From: a virus
DNA length: 21,410 bases
Virus record (IMG/VR): IMGVR_UViG_3300033145_000279
Span: 1-21,410 of that record
Strand: one strand, 5' to 3'
The translations under genes were made by a program, and so were the position numbers. Every line of letters begins with the position of its first letter. The first letter of the stretch is position 1. Under the pieces are notes generated by a model, which did not search any database, had not been told where the DNA came from, and saw only the letters and a list, made by a program, of their open reading frames with translations. Positions 1,017-21,410 of the stretch are shown piece by piece.

Positions 1017-1843
1017 CACGCTCCTATCGTAAAGGCAGGACTCATAATTACCACGCCCTGACATTCAGCACATACTTTCCATGTGGCAGATGCCCCGTTA
1101 TGTTCTAACGTCACCACGGCATCCCCACCATCTGTTAAGACATCCCAATTAGTAACCAAATTTCCATCAGGCGGCTGTATCGTCTCTATGATAGTGGGTG
1201 AGGCGGGACTACCTGTAACAATCCAGACACGAATCTTGAAAGGTCCCGTACCGTCAAGGTGGAAGGTACAGGATTTGATTGTTGATGTGCCCGTCACGAC
1301 ACCTACACTGAAATTAGATCCCACGGTGCTGGCTATGGTTGCTATCAGTGTGGCAAGATCTGTCGTTGAGACGTTGCCATCAGCGTCGAATATTAGGACC
1401 GTGTTTTCACGATCGAGTGGAAGGATAAGATTTGTAGATATTGGTTCTGAGGCAGGGACAGTTATTGCTCTACCGTAATTGGCGTTGAGGGCGAGTTGTT
1501 GACAAATCATTGTGAGCTTGTCAAGACCTAATTCGTGGGTCTCGGCTGGAAAGGCATCATTAGCAATATAGTCAAGGAGCTGAGTCACTGGCACGATTCG
1601 AGTTATGGTGATTCGAGTCCCTGATGTGGGTGCGACGCCAAATACGACAGTACCGCCAGAGAGAACACCAGCACCCGTGACTGTGTAGTCTGTATCTAAC
1701 ACCTTCACGGTATCCACATCAAGTATAGATGTCTCTATTACTTGAAGATGTGAACCACTGAGAAAGTAATACGGGAATGCAAAGTTAACAGTAACCCCAT
1801 TAGGGGAATATTGTATTCGTGAATCTGTTGTCGCTAACGTCAT
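1016..1843 (-). CDS. Tail protein with T7 tail-fibre-like N-terminus (probable fibre adaptor), 275 aa
   Basis: Residues about 10-125 match the pattern of the T7 gp17 N-terminal tail-attachment domain: a YSPNGVTVNFAFPYYFLSGSHLQV opening segment (written here in pieces: YSPNG, NFAFPYYF, HLQV), a YTV strand, GTRITITRIVP, and an ETHELGLDKLTMICQQL helix. In relatives this domain fixes the fibre to the tail. The rest (about 180-275) is Thr/Val/Gly-rich and beta-like, ending in a CAEC pair of cysteines, and I do not recognise it. At 275 residues the protein is too short for a whole T7-type fibre, so it likely acts as an adaptor for the spike encoded next. The start overlaps the upstream stop as ATGA (1840-1843), and its own stop overlaps the spike start as TGATG, which implies translational coupling and joint assembly. 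Confidence 0.8.
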   Translation of the reverse strand: MTLATTDSRIQYSPNGVTVNFAFPYYFLSGSHLQVIETSILDVDTVKVLDTDYTVTGAGVLSGGTVVFGVAPTSGTRITITRIVPVTQLLDYIANDAFPAETHELGLDKLTMICQQLALNANYGRAITVPASEPISTNLILPLDRENTVLIFDADGNVSTTDLATLIATIASTVGSNFSVGVVTGTSTIKSCTFHLDGTGPFKIRVWIVTGSPASPTIIETIQPPDGNLVTNWDVLTDGGDAVVTLEHNGASATWKVCAECQGVVIMSPAFTIGA

Positions 1844-4365
1844 CTCACTACCTCCGTAGGTCGTATAAAGAAACCTTGATTATTTCGCTCCTCAACATTT
1901 CGTTCCATCCTACGAGTATATCCAGGACTCATCATCTCCTGTATATTCCATAGTATAATATAATCCAGGACTGGTCTAATGTAAAACAAATTGATATACG
2001 GAGTGTTACCTAGGACTAATTTTTCCGCGGATCTAGCCACGGGTTTTCCAGATTTGAGGTCGGTGATGGTTGCTGCCAGTTCCGGAATTTGCCCTATGAC
2101 GGGTCCTGTGGTCACGTTAAGGAAGTTGCGATAGCTACGATCATATTCAGTAAAGAGAAAATCGCCATAAATCCCCAGTCCCCCACCACGTAACATGGCA
2201 TCATTGAGGACTCGCCAGGCTATAGTTCCATCAGCATCGATTAAACGTCTTGGTGTTCTCCCCTTAAGAGCATCCTTAATTGACATCGACACATAACCCC
2301 CAACTGTGGTCAATGCAATCAATTGTGCCAGTCTAAAATTGCCCTTGTTCATGAGTCTCGCAATACCTGAGAACTGACCATGACTCCTAAGTTCACGCAT
2401 TATCACTCGATTCCACACAGATATCGGGAAGGACTTAAAGAGCATTAGTAACCTTGCCGCCATCCCCTTGACCGTACCTGCCTGGGTATTGAGATTCGCT
2501 ATGAGACGTTCCTTATTACCTGGTCTAATTATTGCATCAGCACCCTGATCCGTTATGAAGGTACGAATTTTCGTTTCTAACTGATCTCTCATACGAAGTC
2601 TATTGTTATTTGAGACAATACCGCCAGCTTCAAGAATTAGATTATCCACAGCACTATCAGGAAGATTCTTAAGTTGATCGGGTGTTATATATCTATAGCC
2701 ATCCTCTGCCGTATACATAGTGCTTCGTATCGCATCCCAGTCGCGCGGGGTTATCTCATAGAATGATAGTACATTCCTCAACTCACCCGGTAACTCTGCG
2801 AAACCCATCCGTGCATGAGTTCCGAGATGTGCGGCCTCAAGTTGAGCGAATGATCCGGTATGAATATCATCCCACCAGCTCATCCCGTTAATCTTAAACA
2901 AGCCTTGTTGTAGCTTAAACATCCTACCAGACGTATTATCTATGGATGTGAACCGAGACGTTATATTCCCAAGAAATCCATCCACTGCAGCCCCTAGAAG
3001 ATATGTTCGTCTTTTCCATTCTTTAGTTCTAGGACCAAATAATCTAAATTGCTCCGTCAATAGATCCATACCTCTCATGCCCTGAAATGTACCAGCCATC
3101 TGAAAGAACCCCTTATCAGGAATTGCTGAGAGCATAATATTAGGAAGTTTTGATAGTATTGCCTGTGTTCGAGCCCCACTAGTTATTATATGAAGTGTGG
3201 GATTTGACGGCATATCGTATCTACCAATTAATTGATCAAATGAGCCATGCAGCCACTCACTCTCTAATGACTTTATCTGGGCCCTATCATTAGGGAGGGT
3301 GCGCCCCTCCTCCTTCAACTTACGAATCATTCGTTTGAACGACATCTCAGGGTTAGGTCCAAGGTTCTCCATTAATGCGGTTGAGTGGGCGGTACGACGT
3401 ATATCATTCAAGATACCTTCACGTAAACTCTTCGCACCAAATTTCTGATTATACTTATAGGAGGAATCAGCATCCTTAAAATGAAGAACTCTCCGTTGAC
3501 TTACCTTCTTGGCCAACGACCCGGCACCTTGAAACTCGGCCACTGCGGAGGTACCAGATACACCATGAACCCCGGTCAATATACCCTCATGAACTCCCCT
3601 TAAGAACTTACCAGGATCAGCACCTTGAAATGTATTCTCATGATCTAATAGAGGGAGGATGAATTCTTGCCACACCATGAACGATGCCTCACTAGACCCC
3701 TCACCCACACCCTTGCCCCCAGCCTTACGTATAGCCAGAGGATCATGTGCTTGTCGCATCACATAATCATCACGCATATTTATGAAGGCACCAGCACGAT
3801 TCTCCCTAGCAAGCATATCCTCCTGAATTTCTCTTATTACACGAGCCATCGCCTTGGCTCGTTTACTACCAGAAGGTACCTGGTTAGCATCGTTACTATA
3901 ATTCCAAAGCTCTTGAAATACCTCACGTTCTAGGGCATTGGTCTGAAATTCTCGCATCAAGTCTGCCTCTTCCAGGCCAGCAATAAGTTTGCCAACGTAC
4001 CCATTACGAAGAGATACTATCTGTGCATCAACAGATAATCTTGCCCCAGCAATTTGTCGTCTGGACCCATTCAAGAAGGCATCCATCCCCTCGCCAAGAG
4101 TCTTATATCTATGTGCAAACTCACCCATCTTTCTCTGTGCACGAATAGTGATCAAGGCATTACGCTTCTGAATCACCCCTTGAAGTTTATTGTTCTCAAT
4201 CATCTCGGCGGTGACTTGACGAATCGCCTCCTCACTAGAGACCAGACGGGCATTCTCAGTATTTCTGCCCCTCTCAAGAATGGTATCTATAAGCTCTTCT
4301 GCCTGAGACTCAGATATAAGTTCCCCAGCAGCTTCTCTTATTATCGATACACAAGGATGTGCCAT
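1840..4365 (-). CDS. Large internal virion (ejection) protein, probable T7 gp16-like C-terminal partner, 841 aa
   Basis: A large, mostly helical protein with basic and coiled-coil-like N-terminal third (many Glu, Arg, Gln up to about residue 200) and no signal peptide. The middle and C-terminal parts (for example SKLPNIMLSAIPD, SWWDDIHTGSFAQLEAAHLG, RLLMLFKSFPISVWNRVI) have the feel of the large ejection proteins of podophages and of the C-terminal halves of phage polyvalent proteins; a clear enzyme motif is not visible. I place the start at 4365, not at the longer in-frame ATG at 4386, because the ATG at 4365 forms a TAATG overlap with the preceding stop and has a GAGG about seven bases upstream, the same arrangement used elsewhere in this operon. 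It probably works together with the 1022-residue protein just before it, and the two may represent one giant ejection protein split in two. Confidence 0.7.
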   Translation of the reverse strand: MAHPCVSIIREAAGELISESQAEELIDTILERGRNTENARLVSSEEAIRQVTAEMIENNKLQGVIQKRNALITIRAQRKMGEFAHRYKTLGEGMDAFLNGSRRQIAGARLSVDAQIVSLRNGYVGKLIAGLEEADLMREFQTNALEREVFQELWNYSNDANQVPSGSKRAKAMARVIREIQEDMLARENRAGAFINMRDDYVMRQAHDPLAIRKAGGKGVGEGSSEASFMVWQEFILPLLDHENTFQGADPGKFLRGVHEGILTGVHGVSGTSAVAEFQGAGSLAKKVSQRRVLHFKDADSSYKYNQKFGAKSLREGILNDIRRTAHSTALMENLGPNPEMSFKRMIRKLKEEGRTLPNDRAQIKSLESEWLHGSFDQLIGRYDMPSNPTLHIITSGARTQAILSKLPNIMLSAIPDKGFFQMAGTFQGMRGMDLLTEQFRLFGPRTKEWKRRTYLLGAAVDGFLGNITSRFTSIDNTSGRMFKLQQGLFKINGMSWWDDIHTGSFAQLEAAHLGTHARMGFAELPGELRNVLSFYEITPRDWDAIRSTMYTAEDGYRYITPDQLKNLPDSAVDNLILEAGGIVSNNNRLRMRDQLETKIRTFITDQGADAIIRPGNKERLIANLNTQAGTVKGMAARLLMLFKSFPISVWNRVIMRELRSHGQFSGIARLMNKGNFRLAQLIALTTVGGYVSMSIKDALKGRTPRRLIDADGTIAWRVLNDAMLRGGGLGIYGDFLFTEYDRSYRNFLNVTTGPVIGQIPELAATITDLKSGKPVARSAEKLVLGNTPYINLFYIRPVLDYIILWNIQEMMSPGYTRRMERNVEERNNQGFFIRPTEVVR

Positions 4366-7300
4366 TATATATGCCTCGTTATACAATCATTCGCGGCCTC
4401 AATAGCCCGATTCCTAGCATCAACATCACGAGTATCCACCGTCAGCTCATCATAGGTAATTCTCTCGTCAGGGGCCAGGGATTCTCGTATATCAGGTGGC
4501 TCTGCTGCCTCTGCACGAGGGGCGGGTGGTTCTGGCTTCAATCCACCAGTTAGTTGATCAACAACTTCTACTTTATTTGGATCAAAAACAACTAAAGTAT
4601 CAGCATATACCCCAAGACCACTGGAAGGATCACCCATAATAACAGAATCAAATCCTGCAGCCTTAAGACGTTCTTTTACTTCCGGAATATAGATCATATC
4701 TAAAATATTGCGGCCATGGTATCCTGACTCTTTGAAAATTTGTTTACTAGCTTTATCAGACATGTGAGCTATTGATTGTCCAAACTCATCTATCTCAACC
4801 CGTAAAGTTGGATCATATTCTTTTATGATCGTCAAAAACTGACCAACGTCAGCGGGATTTTGTACATTAATTCTAGTAGTAAGTATTGTATCAAGCTCAC
4901 CACCAATACGCTCTTCAACAAATCTTTCAGGATAAAATCTAGATAAATAATCTGTAAGAACCTCATCTGGAAATTCTGAAAGAGAATTATATGTCTTACC
5001 AGTAGTGGTATCAGTTATATGAACCTCTAGATCACTATGAACCCGCATCATTGTATTTGCATATGGCTTATCTCTAGTAAACCAGGCGATTCGACCTTGC
5101 TCAAAATCAACAAGACTAGAGCGTCCATGATACCATGGTTCTCCTAATACTGGATCAGCAGCCTGCCAAAGACTAACAATATCCACACCAAACTCAGATG
5201 TTACATCTAGAATATCTTTCGGTACTTTAGCTCGTAATTCTGTTATCTTTGGTTCTGGTATTTTTACAACCTCTGCACGAGCTACAGGCTCTGCACGAGG
5301 GGCGGGTGCACCCCTAACTCGAGGTTCTTGCCCATATACCCCTGATGCAATAATCTTTTCAGGTGGAATTTCCCCAATAACCACTATATTATCAGCACCA
5401 GTAATTTGTCCAAATTGTTCTTTTGCAACCCTTAATGTTTCTGACATTGTTTTTGGATCATTCATTATATCCTCAAAATCCATGACTCGTTCATGAACTC
5501 CTTCAGGATCAATAAATATACGATCCATAACATCATCAGCATAGATAGCAATCTCTACTTCACCTAGATCCCATACAGGTTCATCTAGTGTAAAGTAATT
5601 AAGTTTGTTGTTAAGTCCTTCAGCAAATATCTTCTCCTCAGCCACAGCAGTTACATGATAAAGCTCCCTACCACGTAGTGCAGATCTTAATTCCTCGATC
5701 CCCTCGACCTTATCAAGGGAGGCTATAGATTCTTTAACTTCGGGTTGATCCAAATAATATGCCTCTTCAGGAGGTACTCTTCTTCCTTCTTTGATGTCGA
5801 GACGAGTAGGTGCCTCTACCTCAGGGGCAGGCGCCTCTACTTCAGGAGCACCCTCTGCCCTGCTTGGATCGAGGTCAACCTCCACCTCCTTAATCTCTGC
5901 CTCAATATCAGTGGCTCGTGATCTGACCTCCTCTAAGTTCTTAGGCTCCTCATAGAGGTGTGGTTCGTCAACCGTGGTTCGTTTATTCTGAACCCTGGCT
6001 CGTTCTCTACGAAGCTTGAGTTGTTCAACAAGTTGTTTCTGTTCATCAAGAAGACGTCCTATGGCATCAGGCTCTAAGGCAAATTCTGTTTCTCCCTTAG
6101 CAGGTTCAAAAATTCGTCTATAATATTGTATAGATGGATCAGATGAGGACCAATTAATTCGTTTACCCCGTTCACGCGCTCGGTGTAATAATTCAAACCC
6201 AAGAGCAGTACCCTCACCCCTCTTACCTATAGAGCCTAAGGTAAAGGCTTGAATCATATCATCAGTCTCTTTATATGATATTGCTGCAATTAAAGTATCA
6301 CCATCCCTAATCACTAACACATCCATTTCTGGTTTAAACCCTTCCTCAAAGGCACTTAATACATGATTAGCTTCTTCACCTTCATATCTCCCAACTGGAT
6401 CATAAATTATATCATCCCCAACTGCCTTAAATTTAGCACCTTCATAATCTAAAGTAACATCTGCAATTGTAGCATGCATTGCAGTTCTTGTATCAACATC
6501 CAAATCACTTAATCTTTCTATTCTTGGTTGATGTCTCTCCCACACCATTCCAGCATTTCGAATATTTCGCTGATGTGGATTAAGTTCCTCAATGACCTGC
6601 ATCATCTTGGCTGGGTTCATGACTGGCTGGTCCTGAAGAATATCATTCAGGGCCGATTGTGCCAGGGCTATTTGTTGACTATCCATCATTCCACCACGTA
6701 ATGCCCTGCTCTCCATCTCATATTCTACCTGGAACATCCTAGCAAGGGCCTGATTTCTATCAGCACTCTGTGTAAGACGGAATTCTGTAAGTTTATCTCC
6801 AAGTTTACCAACACCAACATGAAATGCACCGCCCAAAATTGCACCAAATCCTAAATTGATGGCCGCATCCTTCATTCCATAATGAGATTTCTCTTGCATT
6901 GCAGGAAGAATTACAAGAGGTTCCACCAAGGCAGCACCCACAGCACCCTCAATCACTCCGGTAAGTGCCCGCGCCTTCCATACAGAACCGAGTTGTGCAG
7001 CCCATCTCGCCGTCTTTGCCTGACTAACAACAGGTATAAACATGGAGGCAAGGTTTATGGGGTCAAGTGCCTGGCCAACTAATTGAGTAACAAAGCCTGC
7101 TGACATTCTCCCAAGCCCTGTATAACCTGAAGCAATCTCATACTCATCTTGCAATTCTCTCTTCTTACGTTCATACATTATTTGAGCACCTAAATCAGAA
7201 ATAGGTTCATCAAACTCTAATTCTTCTGGAATTCCCCATCTCTCATTAGCCTCATCCACACTGATCTTCTCACCAGCCTGAGCAAGAGAAAGTTCTGTCA

Positions 7301-7433
7301 TTCTAGCCATACCTGATACTGGGGCAAACCTTAAACTTTGCCTCATATGAGCCGAGAGAAAGGGCCCAAGTCCCACATCAGGTGTTTTAACCCGGAACCA
7401 AGGGTTCTCTGTCTCTTTAGTAAGAAATTGCAT
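4365..7433 (-). CDS. Multidomain ejection protein with GNAT-like and two ADP-ribosyltransferase-like domains, 1022 aa
   Basis: Residues 1-330 resemble the N-terminus of large podophage internal virion proteins, with Gly/Ala-rich hydrophobic segments near 104-136, 155-176 and 187-208 that could enter a membrane. Residues about 330-445 look like a GNAT acyltransferase: DVLVIRDGDTLIAAISY strands, a KRGEGTAL acyl-CoA loop (R405-x-x-G408-x-A410) and a SIQYYRRI end. After a charged coiled stretch and a PEVEAP linker, residues about 587-700 start with an ELYHVT strand (H593), EKIFAEGL and YFTLDEP, and end with GEIPPEKII, like an ADP-ribosyltransferase fold. After a second Pro/Ala/Arg linker, residues about 765-958 carry PWYHG (H769), AWFTRDKPYAN, LKAAGFDSVIMGD and TLVVFDPNKVE, the pattern of ART domains in phage polyvalent proteins. 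The catalytic glutamate of the second domain is not assigned. As a packaged and injected protein it could modify host targets on entry; this is inference. It starts five bases after the upstream gene. Confidence 0.75.
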   Translation of the reverse strand: MQFLTKETENPWFRVKTPDVGLGPFLSAHMRQSLRFAPVSGMARMTELSLAQAGEKISVDEANERWGIPEELEFDEPISDLGAQIMYERKKRELQDEYEIASGYTGLGRMSAGFVTQLVGQALDPINLASMFIPVVSQAKTARWAAQLGSVWKARALTGVIEGAVGAALVEPLVILPAMQEKSHYGMKDAAINLGFGAILGGAFHVGVGKLGDKLTEFRLTQSADRNQALARMFQVEYEMESRALRGGMMDSQQIALAQSALNDILQDQPVMNPAKMMQVIEELNPHQRNIRNAGMVWERHQPRIERLSDLDVDTRTAMHATIADVTLDYEGAKFKAVGDDIIYDPVGRYEGEEANHVLSAFEEGFKPEMDVLVIRDGDTLIAAISYKETDDMIQAFTLGSIGKRGEGTALGFELLHRARERGKRINWSSSDPSIQYYRRIFEPAKGETEFALEPDAIGRLLDEQKQLVEQLKLRRERARVQNKRTTVDEPHLYEEPKNLEEVRSRATDIEAEIKEVEVDLDPSRAEGAPEVEAPAPEVEAPTRLDIKEGRRVPPEEAYYLDQPEVKESIASLDKVEGIEELRSALRGRELYHVTAVAEEKIFAEGLNNKLNYFTLDEPVWDLGEVEIAIYADDVMDRIFIDPEGVHERVMDFEDIMNDPKTMSETLRVAKEQFGQITGADNIVVIGEIPPEKIIASGVYGQEPRVRGAPAPRAEPVARAEVVKIPEPKITELRAKVPKDILDVTSEFGVDIVSLWQAADPVLGEPWYHGRSSLVDFEQGRIAWFTRDKPYANTMMRVHSDLEVHITDTTTGKTYNSLSEFPDEVLTDYLSRFYPERFVEERIGGELDTILTTRINVQNPADVGQFLTIIKEYDPTLRVEIDEFGQSIAHMSDKASKQIFKESGYHGRNILDMIYIPEVKERLKAAGFDSVIMGDPSSGLGVYADTLVVFDPNKVEVVDQLTGGLKPEPPAPRAEAAEPPDIRESLAPDERITYDELTVDTRDVDARNRAIEAANDCITRHI
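4509..4528. repeat. 20-bp direct repeat, copy 1 (distal to ART-like domain 2)
   Basis: CTCTGCACGAGGGGCGGGTG on the plus strand is identical to 5289-5308. It encodes part of a Pro/Ala/Arg linker (PAPRAE) in both places. The copies are 780 bases apart, a multiple of three, so recombination between them would remove the second ART-like domain in frame. Confidence 0.85.
5289..5308. repeat. 20-bp direct repeat, copy 2 (proximal to ART-like domain 2)
   Basis: Identical 20-base copy of 4509-4528, again in the PAPRAE linker of the ejection protein. A shorter, partial CTCTGCACGAG copy lies just beside it near 5272, so the linker seems to have grown by local duplication. Confidence 0.85.
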
Positions 7434-7438
7434 AATGG

Positions 7439-9685
7439 TTATGGGTGATATGCCGGATACATCTGTCCAAACTCAATTTGTTTCTCCACATCTGGTTTTT
7501 TCGTCTCTATAAGCCAATTATCATAGGTCAAGATTAGTTCTTCAAAAGTAAACTTAATCGATTTACCTGTCTTTTTGCTATAAACTCTTTGAGCGTTCTC
7601 ACCAACACCTGGGGCAAAGAGCGTGACACCATTCATATCTTCAGATGTTGCCCAAAACAACTTATCTGACATGAGGTCCTCGGGCCTCATCCTAATATCC
7701 GCATTCAATCGTTTCAGATCAATATCTTTAGGATCAAGCCCCTTAAAATCTGAGGCAGGCTCATACCAGGGTAATTCTGCCCGTTCTAACTGCATATCAA
7801 GTATTCTACGAATCTTGGCAATATCTCTATTATCATGGTTATAGATATTACCGCTTCGTCCAACGTATTGTCTAGAAATTGCATAAGTCTTATCAGACGA
7901 TTCTCCAAAGGCGAAACTATCGGATATTATCTGATCTGATGCCAATGTGATCGCCTTACGTATGCTCATCCCCTTTGATGCATGAAGCATGGCCTGACGT
8001 CTAACTGCCTCATTAAAATCATTGGCATACTGCATTCTCTCAGGACTACTATCCGTTGACAACAGAGAATTTGTAAAATCAATAACATCAGAATGAGTTG
8101 CAACCCTCTTCTTAATATCAGACATATCTTCTGAAGGTATTGCAAACTCAGATTCCTTTATTCTTGACGCATTTAAGAAGTCAATGATCCAGGGTTTACC
8201 CATATGATGTGCAGCAATCTGAGTGACTGTATCAATCTTCTTATCTCCAGAAAGACTTGACATATTTCCAATAAGCTTTGGAAAATGTTTACCATATTTA
8301 AGGCTCAATTGCTGAAGTGTCTGAAGAGCTTGAGCAGGTTCAGCATAATTAAGATTGGCCGCGGTAGATTTAAGAACATCAAGAGGAGCCACAGATCTTC
8401 TCCCATCAGGAATCTCTAACTCTTTCTGATGGTCCAGATTATTATCTATAAACTTCTCAGTCATTATGGCCTGAGTCTCAGGATCTGCTTTACTCAAAGA
8501 ATCAGCCTGTTCTTTCAAGGTTGTATCTTGTAGAACATAGGTGAAGGAGTCATTGGCTAATTGCCTCTTCTGTCTCTTAGCCCATTGAACTAATTCAAGG
8601 AATGCCTCCTTATCCCTGAAATAGCTTCGTGACCCCTTCTTAGGAATATACTTGGCCATGGTCTTATCTATCTGATTATTACTCTGCCCCTCCATCTCTG
8701 ACTTGGCACTGAAGAATCGATATGATTGATCTATCAAAGATTTAGCATTATGAGCCCGACCAGCAGATGTTGCTGACTTATAAATCTCTAAATTAAACAA
8801 TTGATTTGCCTGTCCAAAATCTTTAATCTGAGTAATATTGTTCTTGAGAAGTTCTTCTTGCTGAGCCCTAAAAAGACTATCATGCTTCTTACTAGCGGCC
8901 TGGATTCTACGCTCCAAGGTGGCACGGATATGCATGGGAATATCCTTGGCCGCGTCCAAAATCTCTTTTGCTAATTGAGGATCTTTTGTTGACAGATAAT
9001 CAACAGCCTCAGCAGATAAATTACTTATACTGCTATTAAATGAATCTGCCATCTTCCTTGTAATCTTACCTGCCGCTAATGCACTTGCAATATTGTCTTT
9101 AAGTTTTTCTTGCTGATCCTTCAAATCTTCTTTTGGATTGCTGCTTATTGCAACAATATCAGAGGATGTTCTTATTAGCTGATTAAGACGAATGATCGTG
9201 TCTTGAGATCTATTTCTAGCCTCAAGATGCATACTCTGACCTAACAACCGTAATCCCAACAGATCCAACTCCTTTTGAAGAGCATTTCTTGACTCGACAT
9301 TATCTGCAGTATTTACAACATCGTTCACATACTTACTATACTCTTCTCTGAATCGATCAACAAGTTCAAGCTCTCCCTTACTCTGAGCATCGTCTATCCA
9401 CTCCATCCACTGTTTCTTAGAACTGGCAGATTTTTCATGAACCCATAAGGCATTGTTATAGGCCGCACGACGCTCTATATTGTTATCGATCATCTTAAGA
9501 GCTCGCTCAAAATTACGCCCCTGCTCTGCACCAAACTTCGGTGGAACATTTCCAAGGACAGGCCTTAGTCTTACTGGCATAGCCCTGACCGAAGACATAT
9601 AAGAACTGAGTTGGCCACCTGAGAATAATCCATGTGGTCTGGTCTCTCGTCCTTTTTGTGCGATTTGTATGGGTATTTTAGGCAC
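7439..9685 (-). CDS. Internal virion protein, probable T7 gp15-like, 748 aa
   Basis: A long hydrophilic, mainly helical protein with many Gln, Lys, Asp and Ser and no membrane segment. Long heptad-like stretches occur between about residues 55 and 330 (for example RNFERALKMIDNNIERRAAYNNALW). I see no lytic transglycosylase, protease or nuclease motif. Size, helical content and place (after a small gp14-like protein and before the giant ejection protein) match the gp15 slot of the T7 ejection apparatus, in which gp14, gp15 and gp16 line the channel used for genome entry. The start overlaps the upstream gene by eight bases (9678-9685). Sequence similarity to gp15 itself is not evident by eye, so the assignment rests on context. 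Confidence 0.65.
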   Translation of the reverse strand: MPKIPIQIAQKGRETRPHGLFSGGQLSSYMSSVRAMPVRLRPVLGNVPPKFGAEQGRNFERALKMIDNNIERRAAYNNALWVHEKSASSKKQWMEWIDDAQSKGELELVDRFREEYSKYVNDVVNTADNVESRNALQKELDLLGLRLLGQSMHLEARNRSQDTIIRLNQLIRTSSDIVAISSNPKEDLKDQQEKLKDNIASALAAGKITRKMADSFNSSISNLSAEAVDYLSTKDPQLAKEILDAAKDIPMHIRATLERRIQAASKKHDSLFRAQQEELLKNNITQIKDFGQANQLFNLEIYKSATSAGRAHNAKSLIDQSYRFFSAKSEMEGQSNNQIDKTMAKYIPKKGSRSYFRDKEAFLELVQWAKRQKRQLANDSFTYVLQDTTLKEQADSLSKADPETQAIMTEKFIDNNLDHQKELEIPDGRRSVAPLDVLKSTAANLNYAEPAQALQTLQQLSLKYGKHFPKLIGNMSSLSGDKKIDTVTQIAAHHMGKPWIIDFLNASRIKESEFAIPSEDMSDIKKRVATHSDVIDFTNSLLSTDSSPERMQYANDFNEAVRRQAMLHASKGMSIRKAITLASDQIISDSFAFGESSDKTYAISRQYVGRSGNIYNHDNRDIAKIRRILDMQLERAELPWYEPASDFKGLDPKDIDLKRLNADIRMRPEDLMSDKLFWATSEDMNGVTLFAPGVGENAQRVYSKKTGKSIKFTFEELILTYDNWLIETKKPDVEKQIEFGQMYPAYHP

Positions 9686-10379
9686 TATAATTACCAGGGT
9701 TCAATGAGTTCCTATTCCCCATGTTTGAGAATATACTTAATAGAGAGGATATTGAATTCCAATTAGATGCTGTTCGCTGATTCCTACCTTGTTGCAATAA
9801 CAGTGAAGATCTAAGATCAGCCTCATGCATATAACTATCAGCCAGAAGATTACCCGCATTCATGTATTGTTTTGCACGGAATCTAGATATGGTGAGTAGT
9901 GATGTTCCCTGATAGTTATAGAGAAAGGCCTGATTCTCCAGTCTTACTCCTTCAACCCTACCCACATATTCTACTGACAAGGCATCTAGTTCTCCTTGTA
10001 TGGCAGAATCATAAATAACATCCATAGGAGTCCCTTCAAGTTGAACTCCAGCCTTGGCATACTTGGCCCTTTGCGCTCCTTTTAATCTTCTATTTCTATC
10101 CCTAATTCTATCTGCCTCATATTGAGAGGCCTCTCTTGCCCTTGCCGCATTATCTCCTGCAATTTTTGAATTTAACTGTGCCACAGAGGAATCATAAGTT
10201 CCCTGCATCTTGGCCATCGTAGAATTAAACTTGGCCTCACTCCTTGCTCTATCTGCATTAATTTGAGCAATACTCTGAAGTGCATCAGAATTAGATTGAG
10301 CATTTTGCCAAGCCTGTTTTCCCTGGTTGTACTGACCAAGAGCACTCAGCAACCCACCAACTATTCCCCACCAGGCCAT
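9678..10379 (-). CDS. Small internal virion protein, T7 gp14-like, 233 aa
   Basis: The protein begins with a short Gly/Ala/Leu hydrophobic segment (residues 2-15) followed by QYNQGKQA and long Ala/Gln/Arg/Asn-rich helices, then GAQRAKYAKAGVQLEGTPMDVI, a stretch typical of the small internal virion (gp14-like) proteins of podophages. In T7, gp14 forms the outer-membrane end of the ejection channel. Its start shares a TAATG overlap with the stop of the tail-tubular-B-like gene, and its end overlaps the next gene by eight bases, so the three ejection genes are coupled to the tail genes. The C-terminal third is Asn/Ser-rich and low in complexity. Confidence 0.75.
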   Translation of the reverse strand: MAWWGIVGGLLSALGQYNQGKQAWQNAQSNSDALQSIAQINADRARSEAKFNSTMAKMQGTYDSSVAQLNSKIAGDNAARAREASQYEADRIRDRNRRLKGAQRAKYAKAGVQLEGTPMDVIYDSAIQGELDALSVEYVGRVEGVRLENQAFLYNYQGTSLLTISRFRAKQYMNAGNLLADSYMHEADLRSSLLLQQGRNQRTASNWNSISSLLSIFSNMGNRNSLNPGNYSA

Positions 10380-14002: not shown

Positions 14003-15157
14003 TTACAGCGCATCGCTGTTATTTGTAATGGCTTGTAGAATCAGAACCATATTCGTGATTGACCGATTCGCCGCAGACTCCATGATCTCGATGACATTAT
14101 TAGTACTACCTACAGCCGGTAATACCGCTGCCGCCTCCATGATCACTTCAGCCGCGGTTGAATTTGTGAAGTCCAGCGCCGCCGCGGATTGCATAAAAGC
14201 AACCACATCATTGGTGCTATATATGGTAGGCAACACCGCTGCCGCCTCCATGATCACTTCTGCTGCTGTGGCATTAGTAAACGTTAACGCCGCAGCAGAC
14301 TCCATAATAGCGATCGTATCATTCGTACTCACGATCGCAGGTAATACGGCCGCCGCCTCCATGATAGTTTCTGCCCCTGCAGCATTTGTAAACGTCAATG
14401 CTGCTGCAGACTCCATCATAGCGATCGTATTATTTGTGCTCACGATTGCAGGCAACACCGCTGCCGCCTCCATAATTAACTCAGTCGCGGTGGCATTAGT
14501 GAAGGCCAATGCTGCCGCCGATTGCATAAGAGCAATCGTGTTGTTAGTACTAACTACAGCAGGCAACACCGCTGCCGCCTCCATAATTAACTCAGTAGCA
14601 GCCGCATTGGTCATGGTTAATGCCGCAGCAGATTGCATCAGAGCAATTGTGTCATTAGTACTCATTATAGCAGGCAATACTGCCGCCGCCTCCATGATGG
14701 TTACTGAGGCCAGTATATTGGTGTAATCCAATGCTGCCGCAGAATACATCATAGCGATCGTATTATTTGTGTTAACGACCGTTGGTAGGATTGCCGCCGT
14801 CTCCATAATGGTCTCAGCCGCATCAACATTGGTATATGCTAACGCTGCCGCTGATTGCATTATCCGAATTGTATCGTTAGTACTTACTATCGTAGGCAAA
14901 ACTGCGGCTGCCGCCGCGATTGCCTCCGCACCTTCAGAATTAGTAATAGTTAAAGGGCCATACACCTCGACCATACTGAGGGTATCAGCTGGACTTACTA
15001 AGGTTACTCGTTTGACCTCACTATTATAATACTCAGGGTGCGTTTCAATCGTGCGTCCTGTGAACTTCTCCACTATTACACGATAGTCTGCTGCCAGACC
15101 ACCGACTAGGAGAATACCCAGGAGTATGAACACGATCGTTAATGGTCGTTTAATCAT
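14003..15157 (-). CDS. Ala-rich 37-residue-repeat protein with N-terminal membrane/signal segment, 384 aa
   Basis: I do not recognise this family. Residues 5-23 are a continuous hydrophobic segment (PLTIVFILLGILLVGGLAA) after a basic MIKR start, a signal peptide or membrane anchor. Residues 24-71 are a mixed linker. From residue 72 to 384 the protein is built from repeats: one half unit, seven full 37-residue units (residues 93-351) and a degenerate last unit. Each unit has two related halves, both starting with Thr-Asn: TN-x4-IM-x-SAAAL, then TN-x6-IMEAAAVLP. Predicted shape is a helical solenoid or extended rod. The gene lies between the major capsid and the accessory protein, so it should be well expressed; it might be a head fibre or a membrane-directed factor. 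The gap to the capsid gene is only 27 bases. A plus-strand frame through the same repeats is a shadow. Confidence 0.75.
   Translation of the reverse strand: MIKRPLTIVFILLGILLVGGLAADYRVIVEKFTGRTIETHPEYYNSEVKRVTLVSPADTLSMVEVYGPLTITNSEGAEAIAAAAAVLPTIVSTNDTIRIMQSAAALAYTNVDAAETIMETAAILPTVVNTNNTIAMMYSAAALDYTNILASVTIMEAAAVLPAIMSTNDTIALMQSAAALTMTNAAATELIMEAAAVLPAVVSTNNTIALMQSAAALAFTNATATELIMEAAAVLPAIVSTNNTIAMMESAAALTFTNAAGAETIMEAAAVLPAIVSTNDTIAIMESAAALTFTNATAAEVIMEAAAVLPTIYSTNDVVAFMQSAAALDFTNSTAAEVIMEAAAVLPAVGSTNNVIEIMESAANRSITNMVLILQAITNNSDAL
14105..14944 (-). repeat. 111-bp coding repeat array (seven and a half units)
   Basis: The units encode residues 72-351 of the Ala-rich protein: half a unit at 14882-14944, then seven full 111-bp units at 14105-14881. 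The spacing is exactly 37 codons throughout, and recurring DNA words such as GCCGCCTCCATGAT and AGCGATCGTAT are shared by several units while synonymous positions differ, so the array is selected at protein level and not freshly copied. Confidence 0.9.
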
Positions 15158-16259: not shown

Positions 16260-17144
16260 TTATACAGGTGCCTCCACACCAGGAAATGCCTTCTTATGGA
16301 GATCTTCCCATCTTGCCACAGACTCCTTGTGACCAGGATCCATCTTATTACCAAGCTTCTGCATGAATGATTCATCCCCACGAAGTGTGGCAAGCTCTTG
16401 TTTTGCTTCAGACTCAGAGGTGACAATCAATCCTTTACCCCGGCCCTTAGCATCATCCTCAACAAACATCTTACCCACTGTTACCAACATCTTAATCAGG
16501 TGAGGATTATTACCAAATCCTGTCTCATCCAAGGCCTTGACCAACTCATTGCCACCAAACTGAGAGATCATGTTTTGGGCCATTTCCAAGTTCATCTCAT
16601 AATCATCTTTATACTCAGTCCTAAGAGTATTCTCTGCCTCTTGCGAGGACTGGGTCTGATGATCCTGATAGGAGGTCAACTGTTCTGTCAGTAGGCCAAC
16701 ATAATATTCTGAAACATCCTTTGCTTGTTTCGTTGAGAGACCTGCCTTATGGAATGCCTTGTTCATACCCTCAATAACCTCATTGGCCATTCCAATTTTT
16801 TCTATCTTTTCCTTCTCAATTGGGGTATATCCTGTTGCCTCTTCAGGACGTCCCGTCGCATTAAAGAACTCGTCCCACTGTTCATCCTTCCAAGTCTCTT
16901 TAGGAAGGGCTATCTTGTCTGAACCAATAAGCTTTTGAGCATTCACGAAGCTTCTGGCCAGAGTTGCAGCATCCTTAATCCCTGCGGCGACAATCGATGG
17001 ATCATTCCTGAGATCATCAGGAAGTGAGAGGAGAAAATCCTCTGGTGTCGGCGTAGGTGTCGGCGTCGGTGTCGGTGTTGGCGTCGGCGTCGGTGTAGGT
17101 GTTGGCGTCGGCGTCGGTGTAGGTGTTGGTGTTGGATCAGCCAT
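16260..17144 (-). CDS. Capsid scaffolding-like protein with N-terminal Pro-Thr run, 294 aa
   Basis: After MAD come 15 Pro-Thr pairs (residues 4-33), then EDFLLSLPDDLRNDPSI and the pattern LPKETWKDEQWDEFFNATGRPEE (read as WKDEQWDEFFNATGRP), which is shared by many phage scaffold or assembly proteins encoded between portal and capsid. The rest is acidic, Gln/Glu/Lys-rich and helical, with helices near 110-230, as expected for a scaffold that is lost or cleaved during head maturation. No protease motif is visible. The start overlaps the preceding gene by eight bases (17137-17144). A Pro-Thr run this long at the extreme N-terminus is unusual; in other proteins such runs are flexible extended linkers. 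The stop is followed by the capsid promoter and leader region. Confidence 0.8.
   Translation of the reverse strand: MADPTPTPTPTPTPTPTPTPTPTPTPTPTPTPTPEDFLLSLPDDLRNDPSIVAAGIKDAATLARSFVNAQKLIGSDKIALPKETWKDEQWDEFFNATGRPEEATGYTPIEKEKIEKIGMANEVIEGMNKAFHKAGLSTKQAKDVSEYYVGLLTEQLTSYQDHQTQSSQEAENTLRTEYKDDYEMNLEMAQNMISQFGGNELVKALDETGFGNNPHLIKMLVTVGKMFVEDDAKGRGKGLIVTSESEAKQELATLRGDESFMQKLGNKMDPGHKESVARWEDLHKKAFPGVEAPV
17043..17135 (-). repeat. Pro-Thr hexanucleotide repeat tract
   Basis: Thirty-one codons alternate CCN and ACN (15 Pro-Thr pairs and a last Pro). Third positions vary, but two adjacent 24-bp copies (17080-17103 and 17104-17127) are identical, so the tract has expanded by slippage or unequal exchange in steps of whole codon pairs. 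Copy number is likely to differ between related phages. Confidence 0.9.
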
Positions 17145-19023: not shown

Positions 19024-19416
19024 TCAACCCCCTAACAAAGTTCCAGCCGGAGTCTCTTGAGGATTATACAATTGCCTACGTCGTACTGGACCTGTCTCAC
19101 CACTGGGAGTGAGAATAGTCTGTCTACGACCAAATTTCTTTCTGAAATCTCTTAATGATGCCTTCTCTGCCATCCCGGCCCTGGGTGGTTCCTTAAGACT
19201 TGAAAGATCTGGCATTTCCAGTTTAGGAATTGTCTGTTTCTTCTCCTTGCCTTTTCGTTTGTCCTCCTCCTTACTCTCCTCCCCTAACAATCCTCCTGGA
19301 GCGAAGATCCCACCTGGGTCTCCTAAATTCTGCCACCAATCCTTATAATGAACCCCCTCATCAGGGTTCAAAATATTGAGGGGATCTGCTATTTGGGCCA
19401 ATGACTCTCTACACAT
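19024..19416 (-). CDS. Small basic protein between terminase and portal, 130 aa, function unknown
   Basis: A hydrophilic protein with a Gly-rich turn region (GDPGGIFAPGGLLGEE, residues about 32-47), a highly charged Lys/Glu stretch (SKEEDKRKGKEKKQ, about 48-61), and a basic C-terminal part with FRKKFGRRQTIL and TGPVRRRQLYN. A short C-terminal RR-x-TIL motif like this occurs in small proteins encoded beside the portal in other podophages, to my recollection, but no role is established. The start overlaps the preceding gene by eight bases (19409-19416), and it ends one base before the portal ATG. A DNA-binding or portal-binding role is conceivable; I do not claim it. Confidence 0.65.
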   Translation of the reverse strand: MCRESLAQIADPLNILNPDEGVHYKDWWQNLGDPGGIFAPGGLLGEESKEEDKRKGKEKKQTIPKLEMPDLSSLKEPPRAGMAEKASLRDFRKKFGRRQTILTPSGETGPVRRRQLYNPQETPAGTLLGG

Positions 19417-19783
19417 GACTATCCTCCAATTTGAACTGAAACGCTCCCTCGACTCGATTCATTACGCGACTACAATACTCAAATAATGGGCTATCAGGAC
19501 TGACCACCATTACTGGATTCAGACCATTCATCATGCACCACGACTCAAAATGCCTAAAACATCTATATGTCTGAGGCATATTTCCATCCACACTAAAGGA
19601 CATGTACATACGGTTATGTCTTGTCAATCGGGCGACAGCGATCACATTACCATTGAGAACGCCAAACACCACCACATCACTTGGATCAATCCTAACCTTA
19701 GAATCCTCATTCTCATTAATCCAAGCCTCAAGAAAACCTAGATATTGTTCCTCATATGCCTGATGGAATCTTATATCTTTCAT
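19409..19783 (-). CDS. Small GNAT-fold-like protein (T7 gp13-like slot), 124 aa
   Basis: The sequence has a strand-rich middle, DVVVFGVLNGNVIAVARLTRH (about residues 36-56), then an aromatic stretch and FRHFESWCMMNG with VMVVSPDSPLFEYCSRVM. The order of strands and the final amphipathic helix suggest a small GNAT-like fold, similar to the small gp13-like proteins of podophages. The usual acyl-CoA loop is not visible, so it may be a structural relative and not an enzyme. The start overlaps the terminase stop as ATGA (19780-19783). Its place between terminase and portal suggests an assembly or packaging role. Confidence 0.65.
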   Translation of the reverse strand: MKDIRFHQAYEEQYLGFLEAWINENEDSKVRIDPSDVVVFGVLNGNVIAVARLTRHNRMYMSFSVDGNMPQTYRCFRHFESWCMMNGLNPVMVVSPDSPLFEYCSRVMNRVEGAFQFKLEDSHV

Positions 19784-21173: not shown

Positions 21174-21410
21174 TTATTCTGTGCCCGAAGGCTCAGTCTC
21201 ACCAGTCCCTTCGGGATCCTGATTATCTTCTCCCTCGCCCTGACCTTCGCCGGAAGCACCCGTCCCCTCGTCCCCCGGATTGCGTGTATCTTCTCCGTCA
21301 TTATTATCACCCTTAGGATCCTCATCACCCTTAGGATCCTCATCACCCTTAGGATCCTCATCACCCTTAGGATCCTCATCACCCTTAGGATCCTCATCAC
21401 CCTTAGGATC
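21174..21410 (-). CDS. C-terminal 78 residues of an acidic protein with DPKGDE repeats (5' part beyond window)
   Basis: Reading from the window edge, this frame stays open for 78 codons to a TAA at 21174. It gives five DPKGDE units and one DPKGDN, then a tail rich in Gly, Glu and Asp (NPGDEGTGASGEGQGEGED and so on) ending PSGTE. Such acidic disordered tails are common at the end of phage proteins. Its place directly before the large terminase suggests the small terminase subunit, but no folded domain is visible, so I do not name it. A rival frame (21113-21400) reads the same repeat as MRILRV and reaches the terminase start; I prefer the acidic frame for its composition, though the choice is not certain. 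The 62-base gap to the terminase contains nothing obvious beyond its ribosome site. Confidence 0.55.
   Translation of the reverse strand, partial: DPKGDEDPKGDEDPKGDEDPKGDEDPKGDEDPKGDNNDGEDTRNPGDEGTGASGEGQGEGEDNQDPEGTGETEPSGTE
21303..21410 (-). repeat. 18-bp tandem repeat (six units to the window edge)
   Basis: The unit GGATCCTCATCACCCTTA (plus strand) is repeated exactly, so a GGATCC site recurs every 18 bases, with only the last unit changed at one codon (GAG to AAT). Exact DNA identity between units means recent expansion. The array continues past the window edge, so its full length is unknown. Confidence 0.92.

What the first reader, a model, noticed from the sequence alone, without database searches (positions are those of the whole stretch)
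4560..6446. An ejection protein that carries three possible effector domains: GNAT plus two ADP-ribosyltransferase-like modules
The 1022-residue protein sits in the T7 gp16-like ejection slot, yet its middle and C-terminal parts show a GNAT-like segment (KRGEGTAL loop, SIQYYRRI) and two ART-like segments (ELYHVT...GEIPPEKII and PWYHG...TLVVFDPNKVE), separated by Pro/Ala linkers. Enzyme domains strung together in large phage proteins are known as polyvalent proteins and are proposed to act on host targets on entry. Three candidate modifying domains inside a packaged virion protein would be an early takeover or anti-defence device, delivered with the DNA.
Basis: partly seen in the sequence, partly recalled or inferred. 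Interest (0 to 1): 0.7.

Follow-up and report, generated by a model that had tools for sequence, protein, structure and literature searches.

The report
Ejection protein with enzyme cargo modules
A short-tailed phage carries, inside one of the proteins it is expected to shoot into its host ahead of its DNA, what look like enzymes that modify host molecules, and that protein and its neighbour each keep just one cysteine, placed so that the two could be locked end to end.

Summary
The 1022-aa ORF (4365-7433, minus) is real and is a podophage ejection protein: its N-domain matches phrog_3003 and a gp16-like family (phrog_342). Relatives are mostly 390-650 aa. Here about 700 residues are inserted between the family's N-domain and its conserved C-terminal tail. 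The GNAT is likely but sub-threshold (16.5 bits, cut-off 23.6; motif RGEGTA). The first ART has no support beyond a YHVT motif. All three stretches have foreign GC3 (20-24% against 39%). Relatives carry other cargo at the same place: ART-PolyVal, ADPrib_exo_Tox, ddrB-ParB, GNAT. So: a polyvalent-protein cassette on an ejection chassis, a new variant of a known kind.

An unexpected pattern emerged. This family has exactly one cysteine, 3-9 residues from the C-terminus (125/125). The next gene's protein has one near its N-terminus (118/122; the exceptions look like start-codon or frameshift artefacts). The other ejection proteins have almost none. The pattern extends to epsilon15 and phiV10; T7 gp16, a single chain, has none. 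A tail-to-head disulfide is the likeliest reading; it is untested.

The parts
4365..7433 (-). Gene A: 1022-aa ejection protein (N-domain + cargo + conserved C-tail)
   Evidence: ORF; phrog_3003 7e-21, phrog_342 1.6e-9; relatives
6519..7376 (-). Conserved ejection-protein N-domain, residues ~20-305
   Evidence: Alignments A1/A3; tblastn to Pelagibacter, Pseudomonas and Vibrio podophages
6054..6476 (-). GNAT-like module, residues ~320-460; motif A RGEGTA at residues 405-410 (6204-6221)
   Evidence: Pfam PF13673/PF00583 sub-threshold, 1e-4 in single-genome search, hhalign 30.5 vs shuffle max 17.9; low-confidence a-bbb-a-b-a order; GC3 19.9%
5805..5864 (-). Pro/Ala linker 1, residues 524-543
   Evidence: sequence; 21-bp tandem repeat at 5804-5850
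5319..5723 (-).
   Evidence: GC3 23.7%, linkers on both sides; no profile support
5253..5318 (-). Pro/Ala linker 2, residues 706-727
   Evidence: sequence
4548..5168 (-). ART-like module (PolyVal/HYD2 type), residues ~756-962; H769, Y791 (by eye), D929
   Evidence: viral fold search hits PolyVal ARTs
4494..4547 (-). Pro/Ala linker 3, residues 963-980
   Evidence: sequence; GC3 returns to 38% from here to the tail
4383..4385 (-). Cys1017, the only cysteine of protein A, 5 residues before the C-terminal residue
   Evidence: 125/125 relatives have one Cys at this place
1840..4365 (-). Gene B: 841-aa virion structural protein (phrog_684), ATG overlapping A's stop (TAATG)
   Evidence: phrog_684 3.5e-155; junction
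4351..4353 (-). Cys5, the only cysteine of protein B
7439..9685 (-). gp15-slot protein, 748 aa, no cysteine
   Evidence: position; gp15-slot relatives lack Cys in 72/76
9678..10379 (-). gp14-like protein, 233 aa, no cysteine
   Evidence: phrog_418

Best explanation
Gene A encodes one of two gp16-type ejection proteins (A and B) of a podophage, into which a polyvalent effector cassette (probable GNAT, one module of unknown family, one HYD-type ART) has been inserted between the structural N-domain and the conserved C-terminal tail. Inferred steps: A is packed in the head core with B and the gp14-like and gp15-slot proteins and expelled into the envelope before the DNA. There A's single C-terminal Cys and B's single N-terminal Cys pair into a disulfide, joining A's tail to B's head as a peptide bond would in a single-chain gp16. 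The enzyme modules, tethered by Pro/Ala linkers, reach the cytoplasmic side, where NAD+ and acetyl-CoA are available, and modify host proteins or defence components early in infection. Shown: the architecture, the insertion point, the ART and (weaker) GNAT resemblance, foreign composition, and the conserved cysteine pair. Not shown: packaging, ejection, catalysis, target, or the disulfide.
For: N-domain and C-tail homology with relatives mostly of 390-650 aa. Independent cargo at the same place in relatives: PF18760 3e-17 in L010, PF03496 3e-13 in L016, ddrB-ParB 2.6e-34 in L142, GNAT over cut-off in L023. Window ART. Window GNAT. Foreign GC3 of the three modules only. Cargo of six such proteins, 3478 aa in all, has no Cys, as expected if it travels with the cysteine-poor ejection proteome; for N4-like vRNAP this was published as a possible requirement for passing tail and periplasm (PMC3715699). 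Cys pair: 125/125 A with exactly one Cys, 118/122 B with exactly one and the rest explained by starts or a frameshift; 12-15 clusters at 40% identity; TGT and TGC both used; present in epsilon15, phiV10, YeP6, Shamal and SI2; T7 gp16, a single chain, has no Cys.
Against: No public sequence close to the cargo was found, so the modules rest on single-sequence comparisons. Pfam thresholds are not reached. AF2 models are poor (pLDDT 34, and 54 for ART2); Foldseek against PDB found nothing significant, and the viral hits have low TM-scores and come from a model whose alignment already contained PolyVal ARTs. The ART tyrosine is aligned by eye only. Colinearity of A+B with T7 gp16 is weak at the sequence level. 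No biochemical evidence of a disulfide; each Cys could instead pair with its own kind or be modified.
Confidence: 0.62

Rival explanations
1. The inserted region is structural: a longer spacer or coiled-coil that enlarges the core or tunnel, and the GNAT and ART resemblances are decayed or coincidental folds without activity.
For: Curated Pfam cut-offs are not reached; other long relatives such as L158 (710 aa) and L161 have no recognisable enzyme; ART1 has no support.
Against: ART2 scores far above shuffles with H and D kept; relatives carry unmistakable enzyme domains at the same place; foreign GC3 limited to the modules.
Confidence: 0.2
2. The cargo enzymes act in the virion-producing cell (for example modifying phage or host proteins during assembly) and are only incidentally packaged.
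For: Late-gene location; NAD+ and acetyl-CoA are abundant in the producing cell (general knowledge).
Against: Fusion to a component of the ejected core and absence of Cys from the cargo fit delivery; PolyVal effectors and T4 Alt are regarded as early-phase, injected proteins (PMC5512222).
Confidence: 0.12
3. The conserved single cysteines of A and B are not a mutual disulfide but separate features: A-A or B-B homodimer disulfides, thioacylation that anchors each end in a membrane, or metal or thiol sensing of the periplasm.
For: The sequence pattern alone does not show which thiols meet; gp14 of T7, epsilon15 and YeP6 also has an isolated Cys2.
Against: The two cysteines occur together, at the facing termini of adjacent, mostly overlapping genes, in every lineage examined, and neither was seen without the other once starts are corrected. 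No lipobox or signal peptide is visible by eye.
Confidence: 0.3

Closest known systems
Polyvalent proteins of phages and conjugative elements (Iyer et al. 2017, PMC5512222)
   Same: Several enzyme domains of different chemistry in one late-gene protein thought to enter the host with the DNA; GNAT next to ART is an architecture described there; ART of the H-Y-D type; relatives carry ART-PolyVal and DdrB-ParB.
   Different: The cassette here is built into a gp16-type ejection protein with conserved N-domain and C-terminal tail; in that paper's text gp16, internal virion and ejection do not occur. One module is of unknown family.
T7 gp16 / phrog_342 internal virion protein D
   Same: Gene position, N-domain similarity (1.6e-9), Cys-free body.
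   Different: Two chains (A and B) instead of one 1318-aa chain; no transglycosylase domain detected in A; a Cys at each facing end where T7 has none.
Epsilon15 gp16/gp17 and phiV10 PhiV10p19/p20
   Same: Two adjacent proteins with one Cys each, C629 of 634 with C5, and C596 of 600 with C5; gp17 is homologous to B.
   Different: A proteins of 600-634 aa; their middle regions were not scanned for enzyme domains here.
N4-type virion RNA polymerase
   Same: Large ejected enzyme protein without cysteine (3500 aa, 0 Cys).
   Different: RNA polymerase, not GNAT/ART; no cysteine pair.
T4 Alt
   Same: Packaged ART delivered with the DNA (by literature).
   Different: R-S-E type ART, free-standing head protein, not a fused cassette.

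Membership tests
Polyvalent proteins (Iyer et al. 2017) | Two or more domains of disparate biochemical activity in one polypeptide | tested here: inconclusive
   ART2 supported, GNAT probable only, third module unassigned
Polyvalent proteins (Iyer et al. 2017) | Encoded with late/virion genes, as expected of packaged and injected proteins | tested here: met
   Lies in the ejection-protein block, with gp14-like, tail tube and portal genes; injection itself not testable
ART-PolyVal (PF18760) | Score above Pfam's gathering cut-off (31.2 bits) | tested here: not met
   No hit of the segment or ORF, none in single-genome search; so called ART-like, not a PF18760 member
ART-PolyVal (PF18760) | H in strand 1, Y in strand 2, D in strand 5 | tested here: inconclusive
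   H769 and D929 fall in invariant columns of A6; Y791 is plausible but not aligned automatically
GNAT (Acetyltransf_10 / Acetyltransf_1) | Pfam gathering score | tested here: not met
   16.5 bits vs 23.6 and 16.3 vs 20.7
GNAT (Acetyltransf_10 / Acetyltransf_1) | Acetyl-CoA motif A [QR]xxGx[GA] | tested here: met
   R405-G-E-G-T-A410, aligned to motif A of other GNATs
phrog_3003 / ejection protein A | N-domain homology | tested here: met
   7.3e-21 over residues 20-243
phrog_3003 / ejection protein A | Single Cys within 10 residues of the C-terminus | tested here: met
   C1017 of 1022; 125/125 relatives
T7 gp16 (phrog_342) | N-terminal lytic transglycosylase domain in the same chain | tested here: not met
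   No such domain found in A
T7 gp16 (phrog_342) | Packaged in the core and ejected into the envelope | not testable with these tools
   Needs virion and infection proteomics

The most novel reading that the evidence does not exclude
A wide range of podophages (pelagiphages, epsilon15/phiV10 types, Pseudomonas, Vibrio, Stenotrophomonas and Yersinia phages, and this one) make the gp16-type ejection protein as two chains and join them by a dedicated tail-to-head disulfide, with cysteine otherwise almost purged from the ejected proteins; some lineages use the first chain as a carrier for exchangeable polyvalent enzyme cargo.
Probability: 0.5. Interest if true: 0.8.

Novelty: new variant of a known kind. 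Interest (0 to 1): 0.66.

Why it matters
If right, it gives a defined place, between the N-domain and the cysteine tail of protein A, where podophages load enzymes for delivery with the DNA, so new early effectors can be collected by reading that place across many contigs. The cysteine pair would be a chemical handle on a long-open problem, how ejection proteins reassemble into a tunnel in the envelope: a natural crosslink whose presence, timing and dependence on the host's disulfide machinery can be measured directly. It also gives a simple sequence signature for recognising both proteins in unannotated phages.

Tried and rejected
Whole-protein and segment searches for close relatives of the cargo in IMG/VR, phages and PDB found none. 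Full-length alignment A2 was too variable to search with. L010's ART alone found nothing in GTDB genomes; the two-sequence alignment A5 found 15 loci, which led to the multi-ART proteins used as profile. A phylum draw for PF18760 found only the genome used as its centre. AF2 of residues 305-975 without alignment gave pLDDT 34. ART2 with a 9-row alignment gave pLDDT 54; PDB fold search gave nothing significant; viral fold search pointed to PolyVal ARTs but is not independent of the alignment. ART1 as an ART: rejected as unsupported. Idea that the window's GNAT came from the phages' own acetyltransferase gene: no similarity found. Idea that the cysteines are conserved only at the DNA level near the start/stop overlap: rejected, both TGT and TGC are used. 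Apparent lack of Cys in four B proteins: missed alternative starts or a frameshift. T7 gp16 against A and B profiles: too weak to prove colinearity.

Full report
What the window is. The window is an IMG/VR virus record of 21,410 bases carrying the virion module of a podophage on the minus strand: portal (phrog_332), tail tube A and B (phrog_394, phrog_376), a gp14-like internal protein (phrog_418), a 748-aa gp15-slot protein, the 1022-aa protein of the finding (A), an 841-aa phrog_684 protein (B) and a tail-fibre-type protein. A's stop and B's ATG overlap as TAATG.

The protein of the finding. A's N-domain (residues ~20-305) belongs to phrog_3003 (7e-21) and matches the T7 gp16-type family phrog_342 (1.6e-9). 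Relatives are annotated as internal virion proteins in Pelagibacter phages and lie in the same gene order. Collecting 135 distinct relatives showed that most are 390-650 aa long; only six distinct complete proteins exceed 700 aa, the window's among them. Both ends are conserved, so in the window some 700 residues are inserted between the N-domain and the C-terminal tail.

Testing the three modules. Pfam finds nothing. A profile of 19 PolyVal-type ARTs, most from Cupriavidus multi-ART proteins found through the Vibrio phage relative, matches it with 20-22 bits while 400 shuffled sequences reach at most 7; hhalign gives probability 94.7%, E 6.4e-8, score 50 against a shuffle maximum of 21. His769 (YHG) and Asp929 (GFDS) fall in invariant columns; Tyr791 is a plausible third member of the H-Y-D triad described for polyvalent-protein ARTs (PMC5512222). 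A structure search with a modest model (pLDDT 54) retrieved several proteins named PolyVal ADP-ribosyltransferase among viral predictions, though the model's alignment already contained such ARTs and the PDB search gave nothing significant. (ii) Residues 320-460, the GNAT. The only two Pfam hits of the segment are GNAT models, both below cut-off; hhalign to 25 GNATs scores 30.5 against a shuffle maximum of 17.9 with the acetyl-CoA motif RGEGTA in register. Likely, not proven. Every search was negative; only the motif LYHVT recalls an ART. Its composition does mark it as cargo: GC3 is 19.9, 23.7 and 19.8% in the three modules against 36-38% in the N-domain, coil and tail, and none of 360 overlapping 140-codon windows of the other genes is at or below 20%.

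The same place carries other enzymes in relatives. Vibrio phage 1.182.O has PF18760 ART-PolyVal at 3e-17; L016 has an ADP-ribosyltransferase exoenzyme domain at 3e-13; L142 has a ddrB-like ParB domain at 2.6e-34, a domain named among those of polyvalent proteins; L023 has a GNAT over its cut-off in a single-genome search and a kinase-like stretch just under its cut-off. The natural reading is a stable delivery chassis with exchangeable cargo, as in polyvalent proteins, whose authors note GNAT next to ART as a typical pairing. In that paper's text gp16, internal virion and ejection do not occur, so the ejection-protein chassis seems not to have been spelled out there.

An unexpected signature. 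Reading the C-termini of relatives showed a cysteine in all of them. Counting: A has exactly one cysteine in 125 of 125 complete distinct sequences (312-1156 aa), always 3-9 residues from the end. B has exactly one, near its N-terminus, in 118 of 122; the four exceptions have the same cysteine once an alternative start (L023, L142, L139) or a frameshift (L063) is allowed for. Proteins of the same contigs differ: tail tube A 17.5 and tube B 4.8 Cys per 1000 residues, gp14-like none in 74 of 75, gp15-slot none in 72 of 76. The sequences form 12-15 clusters at 40% identity, both cysteine codons are used, and the pattern holds in epsilon15 (C629 of 634; C5), phiV10, Shamal, YeP6, SI2, a Klebsiella phage and others; one distant B, of Acinetobacter phage TPWB-05, has a second cysteine at 844. 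T7 gp16, one chain of 1318 residues, has no cysteine; P22 gp7, gp16, gp20 and N4 vRNAP have none. In the window the two are Cys1017 of 1022 and Cys5 of 841. The cargo of six loaded proteins, 3478 residues, has none, while comparable multi-ART proteins outside this setting have 1-7.6 per 1000.

Interpretation. Freedom from cysteine was already noted for N4-like virion polymerases and explained by passage through the tail and the disulfide-forming periplasm (PMC3715699, PMC3915230). Against that background one cysteine kept at the tail of A and one at the head of B, in adjacent genes, suggests that they meet: a disulfide that makes one chain of two. I found no report of this in the held library, which lacks most subscription papers. 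The disulfide itself is inference; separate roles for the two cysteines remain possible.

Verdict. The finding is partly confirmed: one ART, one probable GNAT and one unknown module in an ejection protein. Filed as a new variant of the polyvalent-protein theme, not as a member of PF18760 or of a GNAT Pfam family, whose thresholds it fails. The cysteine pair is the more surprising and more easily tested result.

Limits. Sequences are not independent; many IMG/VR contigs are near copies, hence the cluster counts. Window and relatives were read from DNA alone. Host unknown. Each scan returned only the best 80 of roughly 490 relatives.

Noticed in passing
4351-4385, and L002-L169, L213-L222: Single-cysteine tail-to-head pair between protein A and protein B, with cysteine otherwise nearly absent from ejection proteins (described in the report).
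   Followed up: yes
14003-15157 (-): 384-aa protein with an N-terminal hydrophobic segment and about ten ~37-residue repeats (111-bp tandem array, 333-bp higher-order unit), next to the major capsid gene; possibly a head fibre or decoration.
   Followed up: no
17044-17132: Scaffold-like protein (294 aa) begins with a long run of Pro-Thr repeats (6-bp units).
   Followed up: no
21306-21410: Perfect 18-bp tandem repeat (DPKGDE) of 5.8 copies running off the contig end, upstream of the terminase gene.
   Followed up: no
19409-19783 (-): 124-aa gene beside the terminase with a weak GNAT-like profile score (hhalign 23 against a shuffle maximum of 17.5); many relatives have an acetyltransferase gene between tail tube B and gp14 instead, where the window has none.
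   Followed up: partly
L211:229-13000: Cupriavidus pampae contig with at least 17 ART-PolyVal copies spread over three consecutive long ORFs, comparable with the 12-copy Pseudomonas protein cited in PMC5512222.
   Followed up: partly
L212, L213, L216 gp14 genes: gp14 of T7, epsilon15 and YeP6 each has one cysteine, at position 2 (MC...), whereas the window's gp14-like protein has none.
   Followed up: no
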